From Candidatus Termititenax sp. (GTDB taxonomy: Bacteria; Margulisbacteria; Riflemargulisbacteria; GWF2-35-9; DYQY01), in the NCBI GenBank assembly GCA_020719045.1, contig DYQY01000015.1, positions 19,636-33,629 of the forward strand: a DNA stretch of 13,994 nt, written 5' to 3'. Below, piece by piece: positions 1-9,680 of the stretch; the stretch's first letter is position 1; every line of letters starts with the position of its first letter. Both the position numbers and the translations under genes were made by a program. The notes under the pieces are model-generated. The model was not told the DNA's origin and searched no databases. It was given only the letters and a program-made list of their open reading frames with translations.

Positions 1-3000
1 AACTCTATCTTCTTGCACCATATAACTTATAAGAGCTTTTCTGTTCTCTTCTCCAGCTACGGCATCCTTCATCGCTACAGGATTCTCATTAACATATCTA
101 GCTACTGCTATAGGATTATTTAAGGCCATTAACTGTTCAGTCTTATTAGCAACAGGCTCATTACTACTAAATATCTTTGCTAAATTACCATCCCTGCTCT
201 TTGTTAAGCTTATTGTCTCAACCGTTGTCTTTAGGTCAGCTATCGCTGCTTGTACTTGTGGCGATACCTCCACCTTCGTACTTGCACTCTGTTTTGCAAC
301 GCTCTCACTTATTTCGCTAACTACTTGTGATAGAGTTTCCATGCTCTTCTTGCTACTTAAATCATTCTTACTTACCTGCTGGATTAGCTCCGCTGATATC
401 GGAACACTCTTACTAAGCTCCTTTAACGCACTGGTTAACTTAGCAACAGCTTCTTTCTCTTGCACTTCAACAACTTCAGGACTACTCTTACTCCTATCTA
501 TAAATGGATTATGAAACGTCTCTATTATTTGCTGTATATTTGCAATCGATTGTGCTGGTGATGTCTCTGACTTTCTTTCCAGCTCGCTTAACATACCAGC
601 ATCTGTCTGTTTTGCCTTTGCTACCTCTGGAACACTACTAATATTTTGTATCTGAACATTACTACTATTAACAGCAGCAACTGCTTGTGTTGATGCTGCT
701 ACTGCTTGAATATTAGCATCCTGCTCAGAAACACTATCAGAAACACTAAAAGAAGAATCACTATTAATTGTCTGAGATGTATTTACTGTGACACTTGTTG
801 AAGTTCTATTTGCCACAGAATCCTTAACACTTGACGGAGCACCTTGTAACTTTAAATCATTATCACGACCATCAGAGTCCATCATTATTTTTCCATCAGA
901 CATAACTGAACTATAATCAGCATGGTTTTTATTGACCATTGCTGTAACCTTCACATTACTATTTGCTTCAACATTAACATCCATCGCTAATAACAAATTA
1001 GCATCACTAGCAGCCTTATTAGGTTTTTCTGAAATACTGAGTACACCATTCTCACTGTTGGTTGACGCTGCTTTGAAATCCAAACTATAAGTAGCCTTGT
1101 TTTTGGTAAATTCAGCAGAAATATGGGCAGTACCATCCTCGTTTGTTGTAATAAAAAGCTTATAATTATTAATTTGCAATTTTTCAGCTAAAGCAGTCGC
1201 TACTAGCATAGCAATATCGCAATCTTTAACATCTTTTTGATACTTACTAAAAACATCCAGTTTTTGCAGCTTTTTAAGGTTAGCACTTAATGTTTTTTCG
1301 GTTAATGCTTCATTTATCTTTTCATATATAGCAGTTTGATCTTTACTTAATGTAGATACCTTCAAACTTGAACTAATCTGACTATTATTATGAATAATAT
1401 TTTCACTTGAAATCGACTCCATATTAGACGATGAGGGCTTTGCTGAAGAAGCTGAATCAACTAAACTTTCTTTCTTACCTAAAACATCTTGAAGAAACTC
1501 TACAATACCAACTTTCTCCAAGGCATCGGCTACTGCCTTTTTGACTTCGGAAATAGACAAAGATGCCTGGAACACATCAATGGCCTCTTGAATCACAGCC
1601 TGAAAAGCAGTAGTAGGGTTAGAGTTTATGCCCTGAATCGCTGAATTAAAGTTAGCACCCTGAGAAGTTCCAGTGGCTGATGACTGTATAATAGCAGCGG
1701 TTGATGCACGCTGTGAAACAGCATCTTGAATACTCTTAGTAAGTAGCTTTGTTGCTATCTCAAGGTTAAATTGTTTTAATCCAAAAGCTGCATTCTTCAC
1801 TTCAAGATACTCTTTTGTTAAAGCTGCCTTGCCTGCATCATCTGTTATTCCCATCGACTTAGCTTTTGCATCTAAGTAGGCTTTGTCAGCAGCTGTCCCC
1901 TGAAAATTATTCATACTTTCTTCTCCACCAAACCTTCTTGCACTAAAAAATGGTGCCCCAGCAAACTTATTAAACTTACTAAAGAACCCCTCAGTAGCCA
2001 CTACTTGATTTGTATTCTTCGTTGCTACTGGTGTTGCTGCAGTATTTGATGCAGACGTTGCAGCAGATGGTGCTGCTGGAGTCCCCGCTGGTTTTGCCTC
2101 TGTTCCTGCTACTCCTCCTGCTGCTTGTAGTGTTGCACTTGTATTGTTTTGGTTATTATTCTCTACCTTAGTAGCCTCATTTTTTGCTGTCTCACTTGTC
2201 TTGCTTAAGGAAGGCAATACTTTCATCGCCAGTCCAACAGCAGGAACGAGGTTACTAATAAAGGAAGGAGCCGCTGATCCTCCTGCTTTCCCTTCATTTT
2301 TTTCAGCAGAAGCCTTTGTCTCTGATTTAGGATCAGTATTATTTGTTGATGAAGGTGAAAGGCTAGCTGTTGTATTAGCATTCGGATTGACAGCTGCAGG
2401 ATTAGCTACTACATTAGGTGCAGGTGCTGGCATTACTGCAGCAGGAGCAGCAATTGGTGTTGCTGTTGTTGAACCTGAGTCTAGTGTTACTGCCGGAGTG
2501 TCTTTTGCAGGGTCTTTAAAATCACTTAAGATTGCGCCCTTAAGTGCATTAACAAGCGCTAAGGCAAAGGCCTGAATCATTGCATCATACATTTGTTGTT
2601 GTCTGTTAGACAAGGTCATCGCATACGAATTTGATTCGGCTTTCTTTGCATTGCTTATAGCAAGGTTAGATAGCGCAGTATTTTTTCCCATTGACTGATT
2701 ATTACCAAAAGCTCTGTCAGCCTTTGCTTCCGCACCATCCCGATACTTATCCCTTGCCACTTTCTCGAAATGCTCTTTCAGAAGCTCCATTATTAAGCTT
2801 CTTAATAATCCCATTAGTGCATTTGTAACTGCATGAGTCATACCAGAACCTTCACCACCATAACCAGTAACCAAAGCCATTACTGCTTTCATTGTGCCTG
2901 ACAAGTCACTAGTAAATCCTTTTCCGTCAGAACTAGTCCCAGATTTAATCCCATCAGCTAGTTGAATAGCTCCACCTACAGCTTGTAAGGCAGCAAATAT

Positions 3001-6000
3001 TATAGTAATCATGCCTGCAGCTTTCATAGCAGATAAGTCTTCCTCTGCCTGGGCAATAGCATTAATTGAAGCAATCTGCATTTTAGCTAATGCTACAGCA
3101 AGAGATAAAGCTATATTCATCGCCTGACCTTGATACTGAACAATAGCTGAAGTTATCTGAAAGTTCTCAACTGTTGATGGTGTTCTAAAAAGCATAGACA
3201 TAACAGCTTGTTTCGCCTCAGCTACTGATTGTGCCACTGCAATCTGTGCTGTCCATGTTCTCATCCAATTCTTAATAGCTGCCTGTGCTGCAAGTGCTGG
3301 AGCTGGATCATAAGCTACTCTACCTCCACCAGATGACACTATCATGCCACTTGCCGCATTGTTTACAGTATCAAATGCTGACTGTGTAAGAGAACTATTC
3401 GTTCCTGAATTTTCTATTTCTTCAAAATTAATCCCAAACATTTCTGAATATGTTTCTTTCATTCTATCAATATTCGCCTGTGCATTATCTTGCATTTCAA
3501 AGGTCTGTGCTATAGACGCTAGTGCTTGCAAAATAGCTGAAACTGCAATAATAATATTAGCAATTGTCTTAACCATCTCTGCTAAATCCTTTAATATTTG
3601 CACTATCTTTAATGCACTTCCAATAGCTGATAAACAAGACAAACCAATACTTATCCATCCCCAAGTATTGGCTGTCTTCATATCATCTTTAGCTTTCTTA
3701 ATTGCTAAAATAGCATCAACGAGTATCTTATCCACCTGTTGCTTAATTTGCTCTTTCTGAGACTCAAAATTCCTCATCTCCATTACATATGAACCAAAGG
3801 CTTGAAATGCAGCCATTGTATATTTAGCTTGGCTTCCCACATTAACTCCAAATAACACAGTTATAACTATAGAGCTTGCCTCTTGGGCAGCAGAAGCAAT
3901 AGCTAACACAGCAAACATCTGTGCTAAAAAGTTCGAAACATTATCAGTACTTGCGCCTAATGCACCAGTCATGGCACTATTTAGTCCCTGATATAATACC
4001 CCCATATCGCCACTTTCTGCATCAATACCTTCATATAACCAATCAGGCACATAAAAAGTAGGCCCCAACGAAAATTCATCCTTGTAGTCTTCATACAATT
4101 TCTTAGCAAACTTATAGGTTTCCTCTGCCTCTTTCATCGAGTCAAGGGCATTATAAATACCCCAAAGAGCTCCCGCAATTGAAATTGCAATTCCGCCTGG
4201 AACAAAAGCTGCCGCTAATGATGCAATTGTCACAAAACTATTGATAATGTGCATAGTCATTTTATGCTTCAACTGTCCAATTTGTTGATTAACACTCTTT
4301 AACTGCATCTCAACTTGTAGTTTTCTGTTTGCTTCCTGAGTTCTAGAAAACAACATCGAAGCATTATAATCAAACGCAGAACTTATATTTGCGAATGTTC
4401 CATTTACCCAAGTTTGAAGCACTTGCATACCATCAACTTTGGTTTGCACGTTGAACAACACCTGCATAACAGCGCTACTAGCATCTGCCATAGCATCAAA
4501 TATAGCAATCATAGCAAGTATCATAATCTGACAGGCCATTATTTGTGCGTTGTAATCATTTATTTGACCAGAATCGCTCATTGCACCCACTAAACCCCAA
4601 GCATTTGCAACCACATTATTTAGTTGACCCCCAAAACTAGTTGCCATAGTATTTGTGCTTATAATGTTCCCAACAGAATTACCACCACTACCATATTCTT
4701 GAGCAATATTATCAATAAAAAGTAAGTTATATTGTAAAGTTACATCGTTCTCTAAATTAAGTTTCATTTGCTCCAAGATTTCTAACTGATATTCCATTTG
4801 ATCATAACCATATCCAAATAAAGCATACCCAATTGGACCCAAAAGACCACTCATAAAAGCTGAAAAAACAGACTGCCCTTGGGCCAAAGCTACGATCATA
4901 GTTAAAATTTGGCCAATAACAGGAATAAAAGCCAAGCAAGAGGTTAATAATCCACTCCAGAAACTTGGTGCATCTTTAACCTTATCCCACAAAGCTGCAG
5001 CGTCACCATATCGCTTTTGAGCAAGCTTTATATTTTCTTCCATCTGAACAGCAATCTTAAGGAAACTTGAATACCTGGATATCCACTGCTTTTCTGCTGA
5101 CCTAAATGCTGCAGCAATAGCTGCTATATTTGCCTTATCATCACTTTTTGAATTTATGCCAAAGAGCACCTTCAAAACCAAGCTTGCAACATCCATTGTA
5201 GTTTCTGATATTAAATAGCCAGTCTGTTCCTGCATAACCATTGTGTCAAACCTTGCAGAAACAATTAAATTATTCTCAACAGACTCTCCCTCTAAAACTT
5301 GCTGCCAAATATTATCACTTTCCCAAGAACTTTTAATTGATGATATTTTCTCCATAGCTGCTTTGCAAGACTCAATCATCATGTTGTTAACACCACTGTA
5401 TTGTTGTAATAAAAGTAAACTTGCATGTGAAACGAGCACATTCTCGTAAGATGATCGTTTTTTAGAATCTACCTTCTGAGCACATTTCTCAGCTATACGC
5501 TTTGCTTCTTCCATATTGTGTTCATAGGCTTTCTGATTAGCCTCATTAGCATCTTCAAGTGCCATTGAAATAATCGTATCAAGATGACTAACGGCTGAAG
5601 AATAACTATCAGAGATTCTCTGTGAAGATAACACCTCAACACTCTCATACTCATATTGAAATAAATACTCAATTATCATCTTCTTCACATCAAGCAGCTC
5701 ATTAAACAAAATTACTGCAGCCATCATAATGTAAATCTGAATTTGAATACCTATAAACTGGTCAACCATCCCCTCAAAATCAACACCAGTAAATGGCATC
5801 CAGTTTCCTGCTGCAAAGGCAGCGGTTTCTTCTGTAACCCCAGAAAGGTCTACACCTATCTCATAGAAGTATTGTTGATAATTAATTAAATTCTGAACAT
5901 GCACATTGTATTGTGCTTGTGCATTTAAAAATACATTAATAATACTATTCATTGCTACTGAAGAATTAACTTGGCTTGTACTCGCAGCAGCTGTATACAT

Positions 6001-7926
6001 ACTTGTCTCATAATGGGGGTTCTCAAAAACTAATGTCTCTCCTGAATATGAGTACACCTCTAAGCTATTCTGATTAAAGGATACATTATATTTACTAGTG
6101 TCTACGACAGACAAAGACTCTATGCTATTAATAGTCTTTGCACTTGTAAGATCGAAAGCAATTGTAGTGCCTAACCCACTAGTATATCCAGCAACTACGT
6201 GCCCCTGATCATCTTTATTACCATTCTCTATATAAACCTTCAACTTATCTTCAGAAACTCCTGCAGCAAGACAAATATTTACAAACAAAATAGTTAAATC
6301 TTCGCAATCTCCTCCACCATTCTCAATAGTACTTTCAGCTTTTTGCCAAACTAACCCTGATTCTTCATCACTAAAATATTCATACTCTTTAATAACATAA
6401 TTATATACAGCGACAGTCACCTCTTCTTCGGACATTGACGGAGTAATTAACCCAGCTGTTTTCATTTCTTGCACTATATCTGTAACTATAAAATTGTCTG
6501 ACTCAATAAAGGTTCTAACATCAACAGTATCTGCTCCGTCATATGCTAAAACAGTTGGCTGAGTAACTGTTCCATCCATATTAAATATCTTAATAAAACT
6601 AGCTTCCTCAATTATTTTTGTATCATTGATGGTGCTAATTTCTTTCTCCTTAGACACATCCAATTCACGAATAACATTATCTTCTGTTACATATCCAACA
6701 ACCAATTCTTCTAAAATACTTCCTTCTGGAGTATTCATAAAAACTTTCACTTTGCTCTCGTCAACTCCTGCTGCCAAATATAGATTTGCCAACAATAAAC
6801 TCCTATCTTCGTTGTTTCCCTGTCCTTTCGTGATTGTTGTTGAAGATGGTTGCCAAATAAAGGCTACTTCTGCATCTTCATAAAACTCATACTCTCTTAC
6901 TACATAGTTAAAAATCGCAACGATAACCTCTTCTTCGCTCATGTCATCATCTAATATGCCATCGGCCTTCAAATTTTCTATTACTTCTAAAACTTCAACA
7001 TCCTCTGGCTTAATAAAAATATGAACGTCTCTTGTTTTTCTTTGTCCCAATAAAATGAAATCTGTTCTTTCAGGCGGTGCTTCTTCAGCACCAAGAATAT
7101 CTTTTAAGCTATCTTCTATACTAACTTCGACAATCTCTATATCAGGATTGCTCCTAACCAACTCTTCGGCTTTAATCATTATTTCTTCTAATTTTTTAGC
7201 GGCAACGTGGATACTATCCTCAACGCTAAATTGCTCTTCCTTATCTAGTTTGTTTATTGCTACCTGAATAGTTTCATCTAGCAAAACAAATTCTTCTTCT
7301 GAAAACAAAACCTGTTCTCCAGAAAATATTTCTTCAGAATCCTCTGACGGTATTTTTGGTTCTAATGTATCAATAATGCCAAGCATCTCATCTAATATCC
7401 CAGCAATATTTTCTCCTACTGCCTCAATCTCAATTGGAAAGCTAGAAGTTTCCTCAATTTTATTAACGATTCTACCTAACAGACTAACAACTTCTTCTAA
7501 ACTATCAGTTAGCGAGACCTGTTCATTAACAATTTTAACTAAATTCGTGTTGTATTCATCAACAATCGCATTTACTTCTTTTCCTTGCCCAACTTGGCTC
7601 TGAAAAAACTTAGTTACTTCCTCATCGATTACAGCTGCACCCTCTTCAAGTAACTGCATTACATCATCATTTAAAATATATGATTTATCCTCTTGGATTG
7701 CTTTCATTAGAGTCTTTTTTACCGATTTAATATCAGTACCAATTGATGAGCCATTCTCTGAGCCTGAGCTAGCTCCGGAAATAAAGAGCTTATCGTCTTC
7801 TATCCTACCTACCTCAAGGTCATCATCATCAATTATATAGTTTCTATCTACTAAACCTGCACCAGCTAAGCCATCAATGCCTATTCCTTGGTCGTTAGTA
7901 ATCTCCATATTATTTTGTATTTCCAT
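1..7926 (-). CDS. Giant multidomain protein with transglutaminase-like peptidase domains and repeated hydrophobic helical modules (C-terminus beyond window)
   Basis: I checked every codon of this frame. It has no stop from the ATG at 7926 to the window edge: 2642 codons, C-terminus missing. I do not recognise the whole protein. Layout by residue: 1-60 acidic and probably disordered; 60-290 acidic helices; 300-423 and 469-592 duplicated transglutaminase-like domains; 725-1670 five degenerate helical modules with hydrophobic stretches near 989-1036, 1227-1260, 1422-1476 and 1636-1662; 1805-1980 Pro/Ala/Thr/Asn linker; 2191-2285 a third Cys/His/Asp fold; 2300-2642 Ser-rich, then helical. No Sec signal peptide is visible at the N-terminus. 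The start fits a GGGGG(A) run just upstream and a TATAAT that would give a leader of about 20 bases; ATG at residue 7 is the alternative. A large surface, secreted or membrane-inserting protein processed by its own peptidase domain is inference. Coding assignment is certain, function is not. Confidence 0.9.
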   Translation of the reverse strand, partial: MEIQNNMEITNDQGIGIDGLAGAGLVDRNYIIDDDDLEVGRIEDDKLFISGASSGSENGSSIGTDIKSVKKTLMKAIQEDKSYILNDDVMQLLEEGAAVIDEEVTKFFQSQVGQGKEVNAIVDEYNTNLVKIVNEQVSLTDSLEEVVSLLGRIVNKIEETSSFPIEIEAVGENIAGILDEMLGIIDTLEPKIPSEDSEEIFSGEQVLFSEEEFVLLDETIQVAINKLDKEEQFSVEDSIHVAAKKLEEIMIKAEELVRSNPDIEIVEVSIEDSLKDILGAEEAPPERTDFILLGQRKTRDVHIFIKPEDVEVLEVIENLKADGILDDDMSEEEVIVAIFNYVVREYEFYEDAEVAFIWQPSSTTITKGQGNNEDRSLLLANLYLAAGVDESKVKVFMNTPEGSILEELVVGYVTEDNVIRELDVSKEKEISTINDTKIIEEASFIKIFNMDGTVTQPTVLAYDGADTVDVRTFIESDNFIVTDIVQEMKTAGLITPSMSEEEVTVAVYNYVIKEYEYFSDEESGLVWQKAESTIENGGGDCEDLTILFVNICLAAGVSEDKLKVYIENGNKDDQGHVVAGYTSGLGTTIAFDLTSAKTINSIESLSVVDTSKYNVSFNQNSLEVYSYSGETLVFENPHYETSMYTAAASTSQVNSSVAMNSIINVFLNAQAQYNVHVQNLINYQQYFYEIGVDLSGVTEETAAFAAGNWMPFTGVDFEGMVDQFIGIQIQIYIMMAAVILFNELLDVKKMIIEYLFQYEYESVEVLSSQRISDSYSSAVSHLDTIISMALEDANEANQKAYEHNMEEAKRIAEKCAQKVDSKKRSSYENVLVSHASLLLLQQYSGVNNMMIESCKAAMEKISSIKSSWESDNIWQQVLEGESVENNLIVSARFDTMVMQEQTGYLISETTMDVASLVLKVLFGINSKSDDKANIAAIAAAFRSAEKQWISRYSSFLKIAVQMEENIKLAQKRYGDAAALWDKVKDAPSFWSGLLTSCLAFIPVIGQILTMIVALAQGQSVFSAFMSGLLGPIGYALFGYGYDQMEYQLEILEQMKLNLENDVTLQYNLLFIDNIAQEYGSGGNSVGNIISTNTMATSFGGQLNNVVANAWGLVGAMSDSGQINDYNAQIMACQIMILAMIAIFDAMADASSAVMQVLFNVQTKVDGMQVLQTWVNGTFANISSAFDYNASMLFSRTQEANRKLQVEMQLKSVNQQIGQLKHKMTMHIINSFVTIASLAAAFVPGGIAISIAGALWGIYNALDSMKEAEETYKFAKKLYEDYKDEFSLGPTFYVPDWLYEGIDAESGDMGVLYQGLNSAMTGALGASTDNVSNFLAQMFAVLAIASAAQEASSIVITVLFGVNVGSQAKYTMAAFQAFGSYVMEMRNFESQKEQIKQQVDKILVDAILAIKKAKDDMKTANTWGWISIGLSCLSAIGSALKIVQILKDLAEMVKTIANIIIAVSAILQALASIAQTFEMQDNAQANIDRMKETYSEMFGINFEEIENSGTNSSLTQSAFDTVNNAASGMIVSSGGGRVAYDPAPALAAQAAIKNWMRTWTAQIAVAQSVAEAKQAVMSMLFRTPSTVENFQITSAIVQYQGQAMNIALSLAVALAKMQIASINAIAQAEEDLSAMKAAGMITIIFAALQAVGGAIQLADGIKSGTSSDGKGFTSDLSGTMKAVMALVTGYGGEGSGMTHAVTNALMGLLRSLIMELLKEHFEKVARDKYRDGAEAKADRAFGNNQSMGKNTALSNLAISNAKKAESNSYAMTLSNRQQQMYDAMIQAFALALVNALKGAILSDFKDPAKDTPAVTLDSGSTTATPIAAPAAVMPAPAPNVVANPAAVNPNANTTASLSPSSTNNTDPKSETKASAEKNEGKAGGSAAPSFISNLVPAVGLAMKVLPSLSKTSETAKNEATKVENNNQNNTSATLQAAGGVAGTEAKPAGTPAAPSAATSASNTAATPVATKNTNQVVATEGFFSKFNKFAGAPFFSARRFGGEESMNNFQGTAADKAYLDAKAKSMGITDDAGKAALTKEYLEVKNAAFGLKQFNLEIATKLLTKSIQDAVSQRASTAAIIQSSATGTSQGANFNSAIQGINSNPTTAFQAVIQEAIDVFQASLSISEVKKAVADALEKVGIVEFLQDVLGKKESLVDSASSAKPSSSNMESISSENIIHNNSQISSSLKVSTLSKDQTAIYEKINEALTEKTLSANLKKLQKLDVFSKYQKDVKDCDIAMLVATALAEKLQINNYKLFITTNEDGTAHISAEFTKNKATYSLDFKAASTNSENGVLSISEKPNKAASDANLLLAMDVNVEANSNVKVTAMVNKNHADYSSVMSDGKIMMDSDGRDNDLKLQGAPSSVKDSVANRTSTSVTVNTSQTINSDSSFSVSDSVSEQDANIQAVAASTQAVAAVNSSNVQIQNISSVPEVAKAKQTDAGMLSELERKSETSPAQSIANIQQIIETFHNPFIDRSKSSPEVVEVQEKEAVAKLTSALKELSKSVPISAELIQQVSKNDLSSKKSMETLSQVVSEISESVAKQSASTKVEVSPQVQAAIADLKTTVETISLTKSRDGNLAKIFSSNEPVANKTEQLMALNNPIAVARYVNENPVAMKDAVAGEENRKALISYMVQEDRV
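1072..1356 (-). other. Candidate third transglutaminase-like fold (residues 2191-2285)
   Basis: A helical lead-in (SKDQTAIYEKINEAL) is followed by KDCDIAMLVATALAEKL with Cys2236, then TAHISAEF with His2268, then YSLDFKA with Asp2283. The spacings of 32 and 15 residues are close to the 35 and 16 of the clear copy at residues 541, 576 and 592. The pattern of a helix starting at the Cys and two strands carrying His and Asp is the same, though overall identity is low. It was recognised by eye and is less certain than the tandem pair. Confidence 0.5.
1987..2514 (-). other. Low-complexity Pro/Ala/Thr/Ser/Asn linker (residues about 1805-1980)
   Basis: Two low-complexity runs rich in Ala, Pro, Thr, Ser and Asn (about 1810-1888 and 1905-1975) flank a short hydrophobic piece (FISNLVPAVGLAMKVL, from residue 1889). 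They separate the repeated helical modules from the Ser-rich C-terminal part. This looks like a flexible spacer in a modular protein. The antisense open frame at 2144-2575 is a by-product of this biased composition. Confidence 0.6.
2917..5754 (-). repeat. Five degenerate hydrophobic helical modules inside the giant protein (residues about 725-1670)
   Basis: A signature of roughly (D/E)(A/V)xxxhhxxLFxh, where h is hydrophobic, recurs five times. The LF cores are at residues 755-756 (IIEYLFQYE), 921-922 (VLKVLFGIN), 1157-1158 (VMQVLFNVQ), 1358-1359 (VITVLFGVN) and 1579-1580 (VMSMLFRTP), spaced 166, 236, 201 and 221 residues. The last four copies are followed by amphipathic helices and then a hydrophobic Ala/Gly/Ile/Val stretch; in the first copy the main hydrophobic stretch (728-745) comes before the signature. 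The DNA copies have diverged too far to look like nucleotide repeats, so the duplication is old. The hydrophobic hairpin-like segments recall alpha-helical pore formers and type III translocators, but that likeness is only in general character. Confidence 0.65.
6151..6522 (-). other. Transglutaminase-like cysteine peptidase domain with intact triad, second copy (residues 469-592)
   Basis: The motif GGGDCEDLTILF carries Cys541, DDQGHVVAGY carries His576 and AFDLTS carries Asp592. The order and spacing (35 and 16 residues) resemble the bacterial transglutaminase-like cysteine proteinase family (LapG-type; Cys135, His172 and Asp189 in LapG as I recall). In that family the reaction is calcium-dependent cleavage of a large adhesin. 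Whether this copy cleaves its own chain, another protein, or acts as a transferase cannot be told from sequence. Confidence 0.75.
6658..7029 (-). other. Degenerate transglutaminase-like domain, first copy (residues 300-423 of the giant protein)
   Basis: This segment aligns without a gap to residues 469-592 (offset 169). I count about 45 identities over the first 113 aligned positions. Shared landmarks are the DV..FI opening, MSEEEV.VA..NYV..EYE, a WQ pair, G.G..ED and LAAGV....K.KV. At the catalytic Cys position this copy has Asn372 (GQGNNEDR against GGGDCEDL). At the His position it has Glu407, while Asp423 is kept. Copy one is therefore probably inactive and may serve as a structural, binding or inhibitory partner of copy two. 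Confidence 0.8.
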
Positions 7927-8103: not shown

Positions 8104-8131
8104 TTGAAAAGGGATGGATAACACTTATAAT
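8104..8131 (+). promoter_or_regulatory. Promoter overlapping the start of the YcaO gene
   Basis: TTGAAA (8104-8109), a 16-bp spacer and a perfect TATAAT (8126-8131) form the best promoter-like sequence in the intergenic region. The -10 overlaps the first in-frame ATG (8130). If used, transcription would begin near 8138, so translation would start at the second in-frame ATG (8142) on an almost leaderless message. Confidence 0.45.
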
Positions 8132-9680
8132 GGTAAATACAATGTATGAAGAATATCAACTCCAACCATCCCCAAAAGGATATAACGAAGATCAAGATAA
8201 AACTATCTTACCAGAAGACACCTACAAAAACACTTTTGCTGCTCTTCAAAAAGCTTTCCCTAATAATACATTCACTTTAACAGAGCTAAAAAGCACCGAA
8301 TTCTATTCTGTTTATGATTTTGATGATGGACTTTTAGGCTCACACGGAAAAGGAGCATCAAACCATCAGTCCAAGGCCAGCGCAATAATGGAATATGCAG
8401 AAAGAAAATCTTGGTATGAATACGATTTCTCAAAAGCTAAAGGATTTATCAAGGCAAGCTATAATGAACTAAAAGACAAAATAGATATGTCTATTTATGA
8501 AGACATTTTTAAAATTCACTATTTTAATGATAAAGAAAAAACTCAAGAACTACTGAGAACAATACCTATGTATTGGATAGAAGCTTACAATCTTACTAAA
8601 AAAGAACCTGTTCTGTATCCAGTAACCTTCAACGACCTTCTAAAATCATCTAATGGCCTTGCAGCTGGCAATACAAAAGAAGAGGCCCTGACTCAAGGAC
8701 TCTGTGAACTAATAGAAAGAGAGCATATTGATAATTTCATACTTGATGCTTATAACGCAAAAACAAGAATAATAGACCATTCAACACTTAAAAACCCTTA
8801 CCTGCTTAATTTGCTTAAATGGGCGAAAATGAATGATATTAATGTTTACTTTTTAGATATCTCTAACACGGTACCTATAACAACAATACTTACACACTGT
8901 GTTGACAACAATCCTCCTGTTGAATACGCGCGCACTGGGGAGGGATACGGAACACATAATGACCCAGAAAAAGCTATGATTAGAGCTTTAACAGAGTATC
9001 TTCAAGGAAGGGAAATTTATATTACTGATCTCCCAAAAGAATTCAATTTAAAAGTTGGCAATTGGCAAACCCACCTAAATCTTGATTTTACTAGAGTTAT
9101 TAATAATGCAAAAACTATATCCGTTAAAGAGTGCTACCACGTAAACCATGATGATTTTAAAAAAGATGCTGAAAAAATAATTGAGTTACTAAAACAAAGA
9201 GGACATGATGTTGTTGCATTAAGCTTAACTCACAAAGAATTAAAAGTACCAGTCTATCGTTTACTAATTCCAAAATTTAAAACTGGAGACGAATTCTCGC
9301 CTTTTGCTAGGAATCAACATTACATAATTAGTTTTTTATTAAAAATAGCCAAACTTGATGACCAAGCTTGGGAATATTACCAAAAACATAAACATAAAAT
9401 AACAACAATAAATAGTGAATCGCTAGAACTTATAAAACAAATAAATAAAATTACGAATTATGGACTTAATGCTGAAGACACCCAAAGAAGTCTTCTTCAC
9501 GATGATGTTCTTTATAAAATAATGATGCCAAGAAATCACATGGCGACATTCAAATTCTCCTCTTATGTAAAAAGAAATATCCTTGCTGCCATAGAAGTTT
9601 TAGGCGGAGTAATTATTAATAAGCCAGAAGCGAATACAACAAACACACCTGAGCAGGAGCTAACGACTGTTCAAGATTAA
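8130..9680 (+). CDS. Standalone YcaO-family ATP-dependent protein
   Basis: This 516-residue protein has the YcaO ATP- and magnesium-binding signatures in order: SxxxAxxExxER at Ser81-Arg92, NGLAAGNTKEEAL with an ExxER at Glu193-Arg197, and TExxQ at Thr288-Gln292. YcaO enzymes phosphorylate a backbone amide oxygen to make azolines, thioamides or amidines in peptides; E. coli YcaO instead supports beta-methylthiolation of ribosomal protein S12. This one lacks the Pro-rich C-terminus of azoline-forming members, ending in an Asn/Thr/Glu tail, and has no partner-protein gene or obvious precursor peptide nearby. Its substrate is therefore unknown. Residues 340-500 are a helical C-terminal extension. 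The start is uncertain: ATG 8130 lies inside a good -10 box and has no well-placed ribosome-binding site, so ATG 8142 (512 residues) is a serious alternative. The 3' end overlaps the convergent GH13 gene by 65 bp. Confidence 0.9.
   Translation: MVNTMYEEYQLQPSPKGYNEDQDKTILPEDTYKNTFAALQKAFPNNTFTLTELKSTEFYSVYDFDDGLLGSHGKGASNHQSKASAIMEYAERKSWYEYDFSKAKGFIKASYNELKDKIDMSIYEDIFKIHYFNDKEKTQELLRTIPMYWIEAYNLTKKEPVLYPVTFNDLLKSSNGLAAGNTKEEALTQGLCELIEREHIDNFILDAYNAKTRIIDHSTLKNPYLLNLLKWAKMNDINVYFLDISNTVPITTILTHCVDNNPPVEYARTGEGYGTHNDPEKAMIRALTEYLQGREIYITDLPKEFNLKVGNWQTHLNLDFTRVINNAKTISVKECYHVNHDDFKKDAEKIIELLKQRGHDVVALSLTHKELKVPVYRLLIPKFKTGDEFSPFARNQHYIISFLLKIAKLDDQAWEYYQKHKHKITTINSESLELIKQINKITNYGLNAEDTQRSLLHDDVLYKIMMPRNHMATFKFSSYVKRNILAAIEVLGGVIINKPEANTTNTPEQELTTVQD

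What the first reader, a model, noticed from the sequence alone, without database searches (positions are those of the whole stretch)
1..7926. Giant modular protein of at least 2642 residues with no recognised overall family
An unbroken frame covers 7.9 kb and leaves the window. It combines cysteine-peptidase-like domains near the N-terminus, five hydrophobic helical modules, low-complexity linkers and a third Cys/His/Asp fold, and has no visible Sec signal. I know of no described protein with this order. It could be a self-processing surface or secreted giant, or a membrane-inserting effector.
Basis: partly seen in the sequence, partly recalled or inferred. Interest (0 to 1): 0.8.

Follow-up and report, generated by a model that had tools for sequence, protein, structure and literature searches.

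The report
Giant protease protein of uncultured Margulisbacteria
This is a real gene for an undescribed giant bacterial protein that joins a LapG-like cysteine protease to five repeated hydrophobic helical units; comparison with relatives ties the family to a flagellum-like protein-export machine without a flagellar filament, which would make it a candidate giant secreted protein of a phylum about whose biology very little is known.

Summary
The giant frame is real. Window 1-7926 (-) encodes 2642 residues; it stops at the window edge because a 100-N scaffold gap lies there. Beyond the gap the frame runs to a stop (3541 codons counting the gap) and is followed by two more genes. The organism belongs to the order of Candidatus Marinamargulisbacteria. 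Orthologues exist in six relatives. Near the N-terminus are two transglutaminase-like domains: the first is dead (N/E/D), the second has an intact Cys541-His576-Asp592 triad and folds like the protease LapG. Five ~110-residue hydrophobic helical modules are genuine diverged repeats. The third Cys/His/Asp region is unproven. There is no Sec signal, RTX repeat, anchor or named full-length family. Related giants (up to 7430 aa) occur in 31 of 55 Margulisbacteria. In several other families they lie within about 2-6 kb of the axial gene cluster of a phylum-wide, flagellin-less, flagellum-type type III export system, which the window's genome also has. Best explanation: a type III-exported giant protease that acts outside the cell, possibly on membranes. 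Export, secretion and substrate are inferred. In the window's own order the gene is not adjacent to that system.

The parts
1..7926 (-). Giant gene, first 2642 codons; continues across a 100-N gap to a stop (L005:6937-17562, G000:C29)
7747..7926 (-). N-terminal 60 residues without Sec signal; GIGIDGLAGAG stretch shared with orthologues, loosely similar in short paralogues
   Evidence: similarity by eye, not tested statistically
6622..7047 (-). TG1, catalytically dead transglutaminase-like domain (N372/E407/D423), residues 294-435
   Evidence: repeat of TG2, E 1.8e-27
6064..6618 (-). TG2, LapG-like cysteine protease domain, intact triad Cys541-His576-Asp592, residues 437-621
   Evidence: Pfam Transglut_core 3.9e-9; triad conserved; AF2 pLDDT 78.5 and Foldseek to LapG 1.2e-6
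5353..5787 (-). Helical module M1, residues 714-858
4936..5277 (-). Helical module M2, residues 884-997
4234..4578 (-). Helical module M3, residues 1117-1231, followed by a hydrophobic stretch
3655..3957 (-). Helical module M4, residues 1324-1424, followed by two hydrophobic stretches
2998..3315 (-). Helical module M5, residues 1538-1643
1957..2499 (-). Ala/Pro/Thr/Asn-rich low-complexity linker, residues 1810-1990
1042..1314 (-). Possible third TG-like region (C2236, H2268, D2283); found only in the window's genus
   Evidence: not significant
1..549 (-). First C-terminal repeat CR1 (residues 2460-2642); CR2 and CR3 lie beyond the gap

Best explanation
The gene encodes a new family of giant protein in Margulisbacteria. 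It carries a LapG-like cysteine protease (TG2) near its N-terminus, then a train of amphipathic/hydrophobic helical modules, linkers and C-terminal helical repeats. I propose that it is exported, without a Sec signal, by the cell's flagellum-type type III export machinery, most likely the phylum-wide flagellin-less system called 'system B' here, and acts outside the producing cell, the modules associating with membranes or other helices and TG2 cleaving a target protein. Shown: gene, domains, intact triad, conserved architecture, and genetic linkage of related giants to system B genes in other families. Inferred: export, the route, membrane action, and the protease target.
For: TG2 has a conserved Cys-His-Asp triad across the phylum and a confident model whose best solved matches are LapG. 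Related TG proteins occur in 31 of 55 genomes, in ORFs up to 7430 aa. FHIPEP (FlhA) occurs in 52 of 55 genomes but flagellin in only 8. The FlhA tree has a flagellar clade limited to the window's class and a separate phylum-wide clade including the window genome's second copy. The FlgE/F/G-like protein of system B is in 54 of 55, and the window's genome carries its FliM/N-O-P-R-FlhB-FlgE/D-like cluster. In eight genomes a TG gene lies 1.9-6 kb from the small axial gene A5 of that cluster. In class-mate G007 the giant, homologous to G003/G004 giants over TG and modules (E 1e-13, 1e-7), is followed four genes later by a system B cluster protein (4e-56). Short TG paralogues lie just upstream of the flagellar flhA in G000, G001 and G002. 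No Sec signal.
Against: In the window's own order the giant is not beside system B genes; its neighbours are YcaO, an amylase-like gene and two unknown genes. The A5 query was built from six of the eight linked loci, so the chance estimate is optimistic; among the other seven A5-positive genomes only two are linked, and in G012 the cluster is intact without the giant. The modules do not match the needle-like C-termini (hhalign about 1%), nor SseC translocators. The module model is too poor to use (pLDDT 51). Secretion and proteolysis were not tested.
Confidence: 0.45

Rival explanations
1. The giant is a structural or assembly part of the system B organelle (cap, ruler-like, sheath or scaffold) rather than an effector; TG2 trims an axial protein during assembly.
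For: Linkage is to axial genes (FlgE-like, small A5 protein, the ~280-aa family), not to obvious effector genes. Size and copy number of repeats vary between species.
Against: 24 of 55 genomes have no TG match at E 1e-6, although system B is nearly universal; an essential part should not be missing. G033, however, has another giant beside its ~280-aa gene.
Confidence: 0.2
2. A self-processing or LapG/LapA-like surface adhesin: TG2 cleaves its own chain or partners to release it from the cell surface.
For: TG2 is LapG-like; LapG cleaves giant adhesins at di-alanine motifs (PMC6890996); a TAAA sequence follows TG2 in the window's genus.
Against: No RTX family match, no Sec signal, no anchor; the di-alanine site is absent in other orthologues.
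Confidence: 0.15
3. An intracellular giant scaffold or regulator, not exported; linkage to export genes is incidental.
For: No secretion signal of any kind was shown; window-order neighbours are housekeeping-like.
Against: Repeated linkage to the export cluster in several families and in G007.
Confidence: 0.15

Closest known systems
LapG / bacterial transglutaminase-like cysteine proteinases (BTLCP, Peptidase_C93)
   Same: Fold of TG2, GDCED motif and Cys-His-Asp triad
   Different: LapG is a small stand-alone periplasmic enzyme beside LapD and an RTX adhesin; here the domain is fused into a giant helical protein without Sec signal
Giant type III effectors carrying a cysteine protease domain, such as the LifA/Efa1 family (from memory, not tested)
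   Same: Very large chain with a cysteine protease, exported without Sec by a type III system (inferred here)
   Different: No sequence relation was shown; here the export system is flagellum-like and flagellin-less
Type III translocators of the SseC/IpaB/YopB kind
   Same: Coiled helices next to hydrophobic stretches
   Different: SseC profile does not match the giant; known ones are single proteins, not trains of five modules
Flagellar-type T3SS with true flagella (as in the window's class)
   Same: FliF, FliM/N, FliP-R, FlhA/B and FlgE-like parts are shared with system B
   Different: System B genomes outside the class have no flagellin and mostly no MotB

Membership tests
LapG / BTLCP | Transglutaminase-like fold with Cys-His-Asp triad | tested here: met
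   Pfam Transglut_core 3.9e-9; triad in TG2; Foldseek LapG E 1.2e-6
LapG / BTLCP | Match to Peptidase_C93 above the curated cut-off | tested here: not met
   12.1 bits against 27 for the giant; the short paralogue s1 passes with 32.0
LapG / BTLCP | Stand-alone Sec-exported periplasmic protein beside LapD and an adhesin | tested here: not met
   Fused in a 3541-codon frame, no N-terminal hydrophobic segment; no such neighbours recognised among the ORFs listed
LapA-like RTX adhesin | RTX repeats and type 1 secretion end | tested here: not met
   No RTX family in Pfam or NCBIfam scans of the window part
Type III translocator (SseC/IpaB) | SseC profile match | tested here: not met
   Only match in the genome is elsewhere, 13.5 bits, below cut-off
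Type III needle proteins | Needle-type helical hairpin in the modules | tested here: not met
   hhalign of needle-like C-terms against modules, probability about 1%
Type III export substrate | Gene linked to a type III export or axial cluster | tested here: inconclusive
   Met in G007 and several other families, not in the window's order
Type III export substrate | Export through the apparatus by an N-terminal signal | not testable with these tools
   Needs an experiment; N-terminal similarity to short paralogues seen by eye only

The most novel reading that the evidence does not exclude
Margulisbacteria, relatives of Cyanobacteria, carry an undescribed, vertically inherited, flagellin-less flagellum-type secretion system, and this giant family comprises its secreted protease effectors, each carrying its own train of membrane-active modules.
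Probability: 0.35. Interest if true: 0.85.

Novelty: new variant of a known kind. Interest (0 to 1): 0.62.

Why it matters
If right, a phylum with no isolated representatives (PMC6784892) has a widespread secretion organelle of flagellar descent and giant proteases as its likely cargo. It would extend what flagellar export machines are used for, and offer a molecular handle on how these bacteria interact with other cells; one member of the same group, Ruthmannia eludens, is an intracellular symbiont of a placozoan (PMC6784892).

Tried and rejected
Modules as needle or rod proteins: looked alike by eye, rejected by profile comparison. Modules as SseC translocators: no match. Structure of the modules: pLDDT 51.5, not used for a fold search. 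Module profile against PDB sequences: only a keratin and other helical chance-like hits. Small axial A5 profile against PDB: nothing convincing. Needle-like C-term of short TG proteins: T3SS_needle_F at E 0.006, one of five members, below cut-off; PDB none. Di-alanine self-cleavage site: not conserved. Third TG domain: in register but not significant. Anti-phage defence or phage origin: no PADLOC or PHROGs match. Sigma-28-like promoter upstream of the gene: no match for the window gene; weak ten-of-twelve matches only for G004 and the genome's own system B flhA. Literature: none of the paper searches found a description of the giants or of a flagellin-less type III system in this phylum; Margulisbacteria are listed among phyla with flagellins (PMC7018530).

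Full report
Observation. Window 1-7926 on the minus strand is one frame of 2642 codons, improbable by chance at about 10^-80. The window is G000:C29:19636-33629, and base 1 follows a 100-N gap. Past the gap the frame goes on to a stop, 3541 codons with the gap placeholder. A 545-bp DNA repeat of 83.7% identity flanks the gap, and C-terminal repeats CR1 (2460-2660), CR2 (2675-2875) and CR3 (about 3097-3267) are seen. Two genes of 528 and 359 aa follow, the first starting 4 bases after the stop. Relatives show the same: G001 56% identical over the first 1672 residues, split over contigs; G004 4258 aa and G003 4311 aa complete; G002, G005 and G006 cut by contig ends. Neighbouring amylase-like, YcaO or downstream genes are shared with several of them.

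Organism. A scan of named genomes matches G002 and G005 to Candidatus Marinamargulisbacteria MAGs. They are in the window's order, so the window comes from that order of Margulisbacteria. The species itself is not named by the tools.

Domains. Pfam gives Transglut_core at 3.9e-9 at residues 493-557. Two tandem TG domains (E 1.8e-27 to each other) differ: TG1 has N/E/D, and S/Q/D in G001, at the catalytic positions; TG2 has Cys541, His576, Asp592. In an 18-sequence alignment across the phylum W, GDCED, H and D are invariant. AlphaFold2 of TG2 has pLDDT 78.5 and Foldseek's five best PDB matches are LapG of Legionella, E 1e-6 to 8e-6. Five modules at 714-858, 884-997, 1117-1231, 1324-1424 and 1538-1643 match each other in HMM searches (M2 to M4 1.5e-4, M3 to M4 2.9e-4, M1 to M3 5e-3; no shuffled sequence was hit by the full profile) and in profile comparison (M1-M3 92%, M2-M4 96%, M3-M5 84%; M1-M5 only 3%). 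All five line up one to one in the orthologues (M1 is truncated in G006 by a contig end). The module profile also matches giants G053/L053 (1.7e-5) and G039 (2.7e-5). Hydrophobic stretches follow the modules. The modules' fold is unknown. A possible third TG-like region at C2236/H2268/D2283 is found only in the window's genus and is not significant.

Relatives and neighbourhood. The TG profile finds 31 of 55 genomes, in ORFs up to 7430 aa. FHIPEP is in 52 of 55 genomes, flagellin in 8, all of the window's class. The FlhA tree splits with 100/100 support into a flagellar clade confined to that class and a second clade across the phylum with the window genome's C28 copy. FliF is found in 21 of 23 genomes searched, one copy in those without flagellin and two in the window's class. 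The FlgE/F/G-like protein of the second system is in 54 of 55, and gene clusters hold FliM/N-like, FliO, FliP, FliQ, FliR, FlhB and FlhA. MotB is absent from most flagellin-less genomes; G012, G017 and G020 have weak matches. I call it system B. In G025, G030, G039, G041, G045 and G049 the TG giant is divergently next to a cluster of A5 (about 100 aa), an 800-900-aa protein (331 aa in G025), a ~280-aa protein and a ~570-aa protein, ending in the FlgE-like protein where the contig reaches that far, with a ~190-aa gene between. G020 and G028 also have a TG gene within 6.1 kb of A5. The query A5 came from the first six, so those do not count as independent; G020, G028 and especially G007 do. In G007, a class-mate, the 4325-aa giant is followed by genes of 370, 254, 103 and 268 aa, the last a member of the ~280-aa family at 4e-56, and its giant is homologous to G003 and G004 giants over TG and modules. 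The window's genome has the ~280-aa family at C17 next to a small 112-aa gene and the export cluster on C1, but the giant is elsewhere.

Short paralogues. Two shorter TG proteins (383 and 588 aa) exist in the genome. The first lies near the flagellar flhA; relatives G001 and G002 keep this order, and G004 has a TG-less version. Their C-termini look needle-like, but the Pfam evidence is weak, and they do not resemble the modules by profile.

Mechanism. What is shown is a giant with an intact LapG-like catalytic site, repeated hydrophobic helical modules and no Sec signal, in a family whose members are often linked to system B. I infer export through a flagellum-type apparatus and action outside the cell. 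A structural role in the organelle, a LapA/LapG-like surface role and an intracellular role remain possible.

Novelty. No library names the giant, and none of the searched papers describes it or a flagellin-less type III system in the phylum. The protease fold and the export machinery are known kinds; their combination with a train of helical modules in a giant is not described in what I could search. I rate it a new variant of a known kind.

Noticed in passing
G000:C28 (L075:9948-12047) and G000:C1 (L134:6047-13422); relatives L077, L079, L080, L104: A flagellin-less flagellum-type type III export system (FlhA clade separate from flagellar FlhA, FliF, FliM/N-like, FliP/R, FlhB, FlgE-like) across Margulisbacteria, mostly without MotB outside the window's class.
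   Followed up: partly
L007:7349-8500 and L008:6252-8018; L098:5794-7488; L096:7875-8576: Short TG proteins with a needle-like C-terminus; the first lies just upstream of the flagellar flhA in G000, G001 and G002; G004 has a version without TG.
   Followed up: partly
window 8130-9680: YcaO cyclodehydratase-type gene (Pfam 2.9e-57) divergent from the giant; similar genes lie beside the giant in G001, G004 and G006.
   Followed up: no
window 9616-9680: The 3' ends of the YcaO and amylase-like genes overlap convergently by 65 bases.
   Followed up: no
L008:6252-8018: The 588-aa TG paralogue contains stretches resembling calcium-binding repeats (GTDGDDVI, GGQGNNTI); seen by eye only.
   Followed up: no
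L005:5346-6932 and L005:4270-5349: Two unknown genes (528 and 359 aa) directly downstream of the giant; the first has homologues near the giant in G001, G003 and G004.
   Followed up: partly
L161:8893-15999 (G033): Another giant frame of over 2369 aa beside a ~280-aa system B protein in a lineage without a TG match.
   Followed up: no
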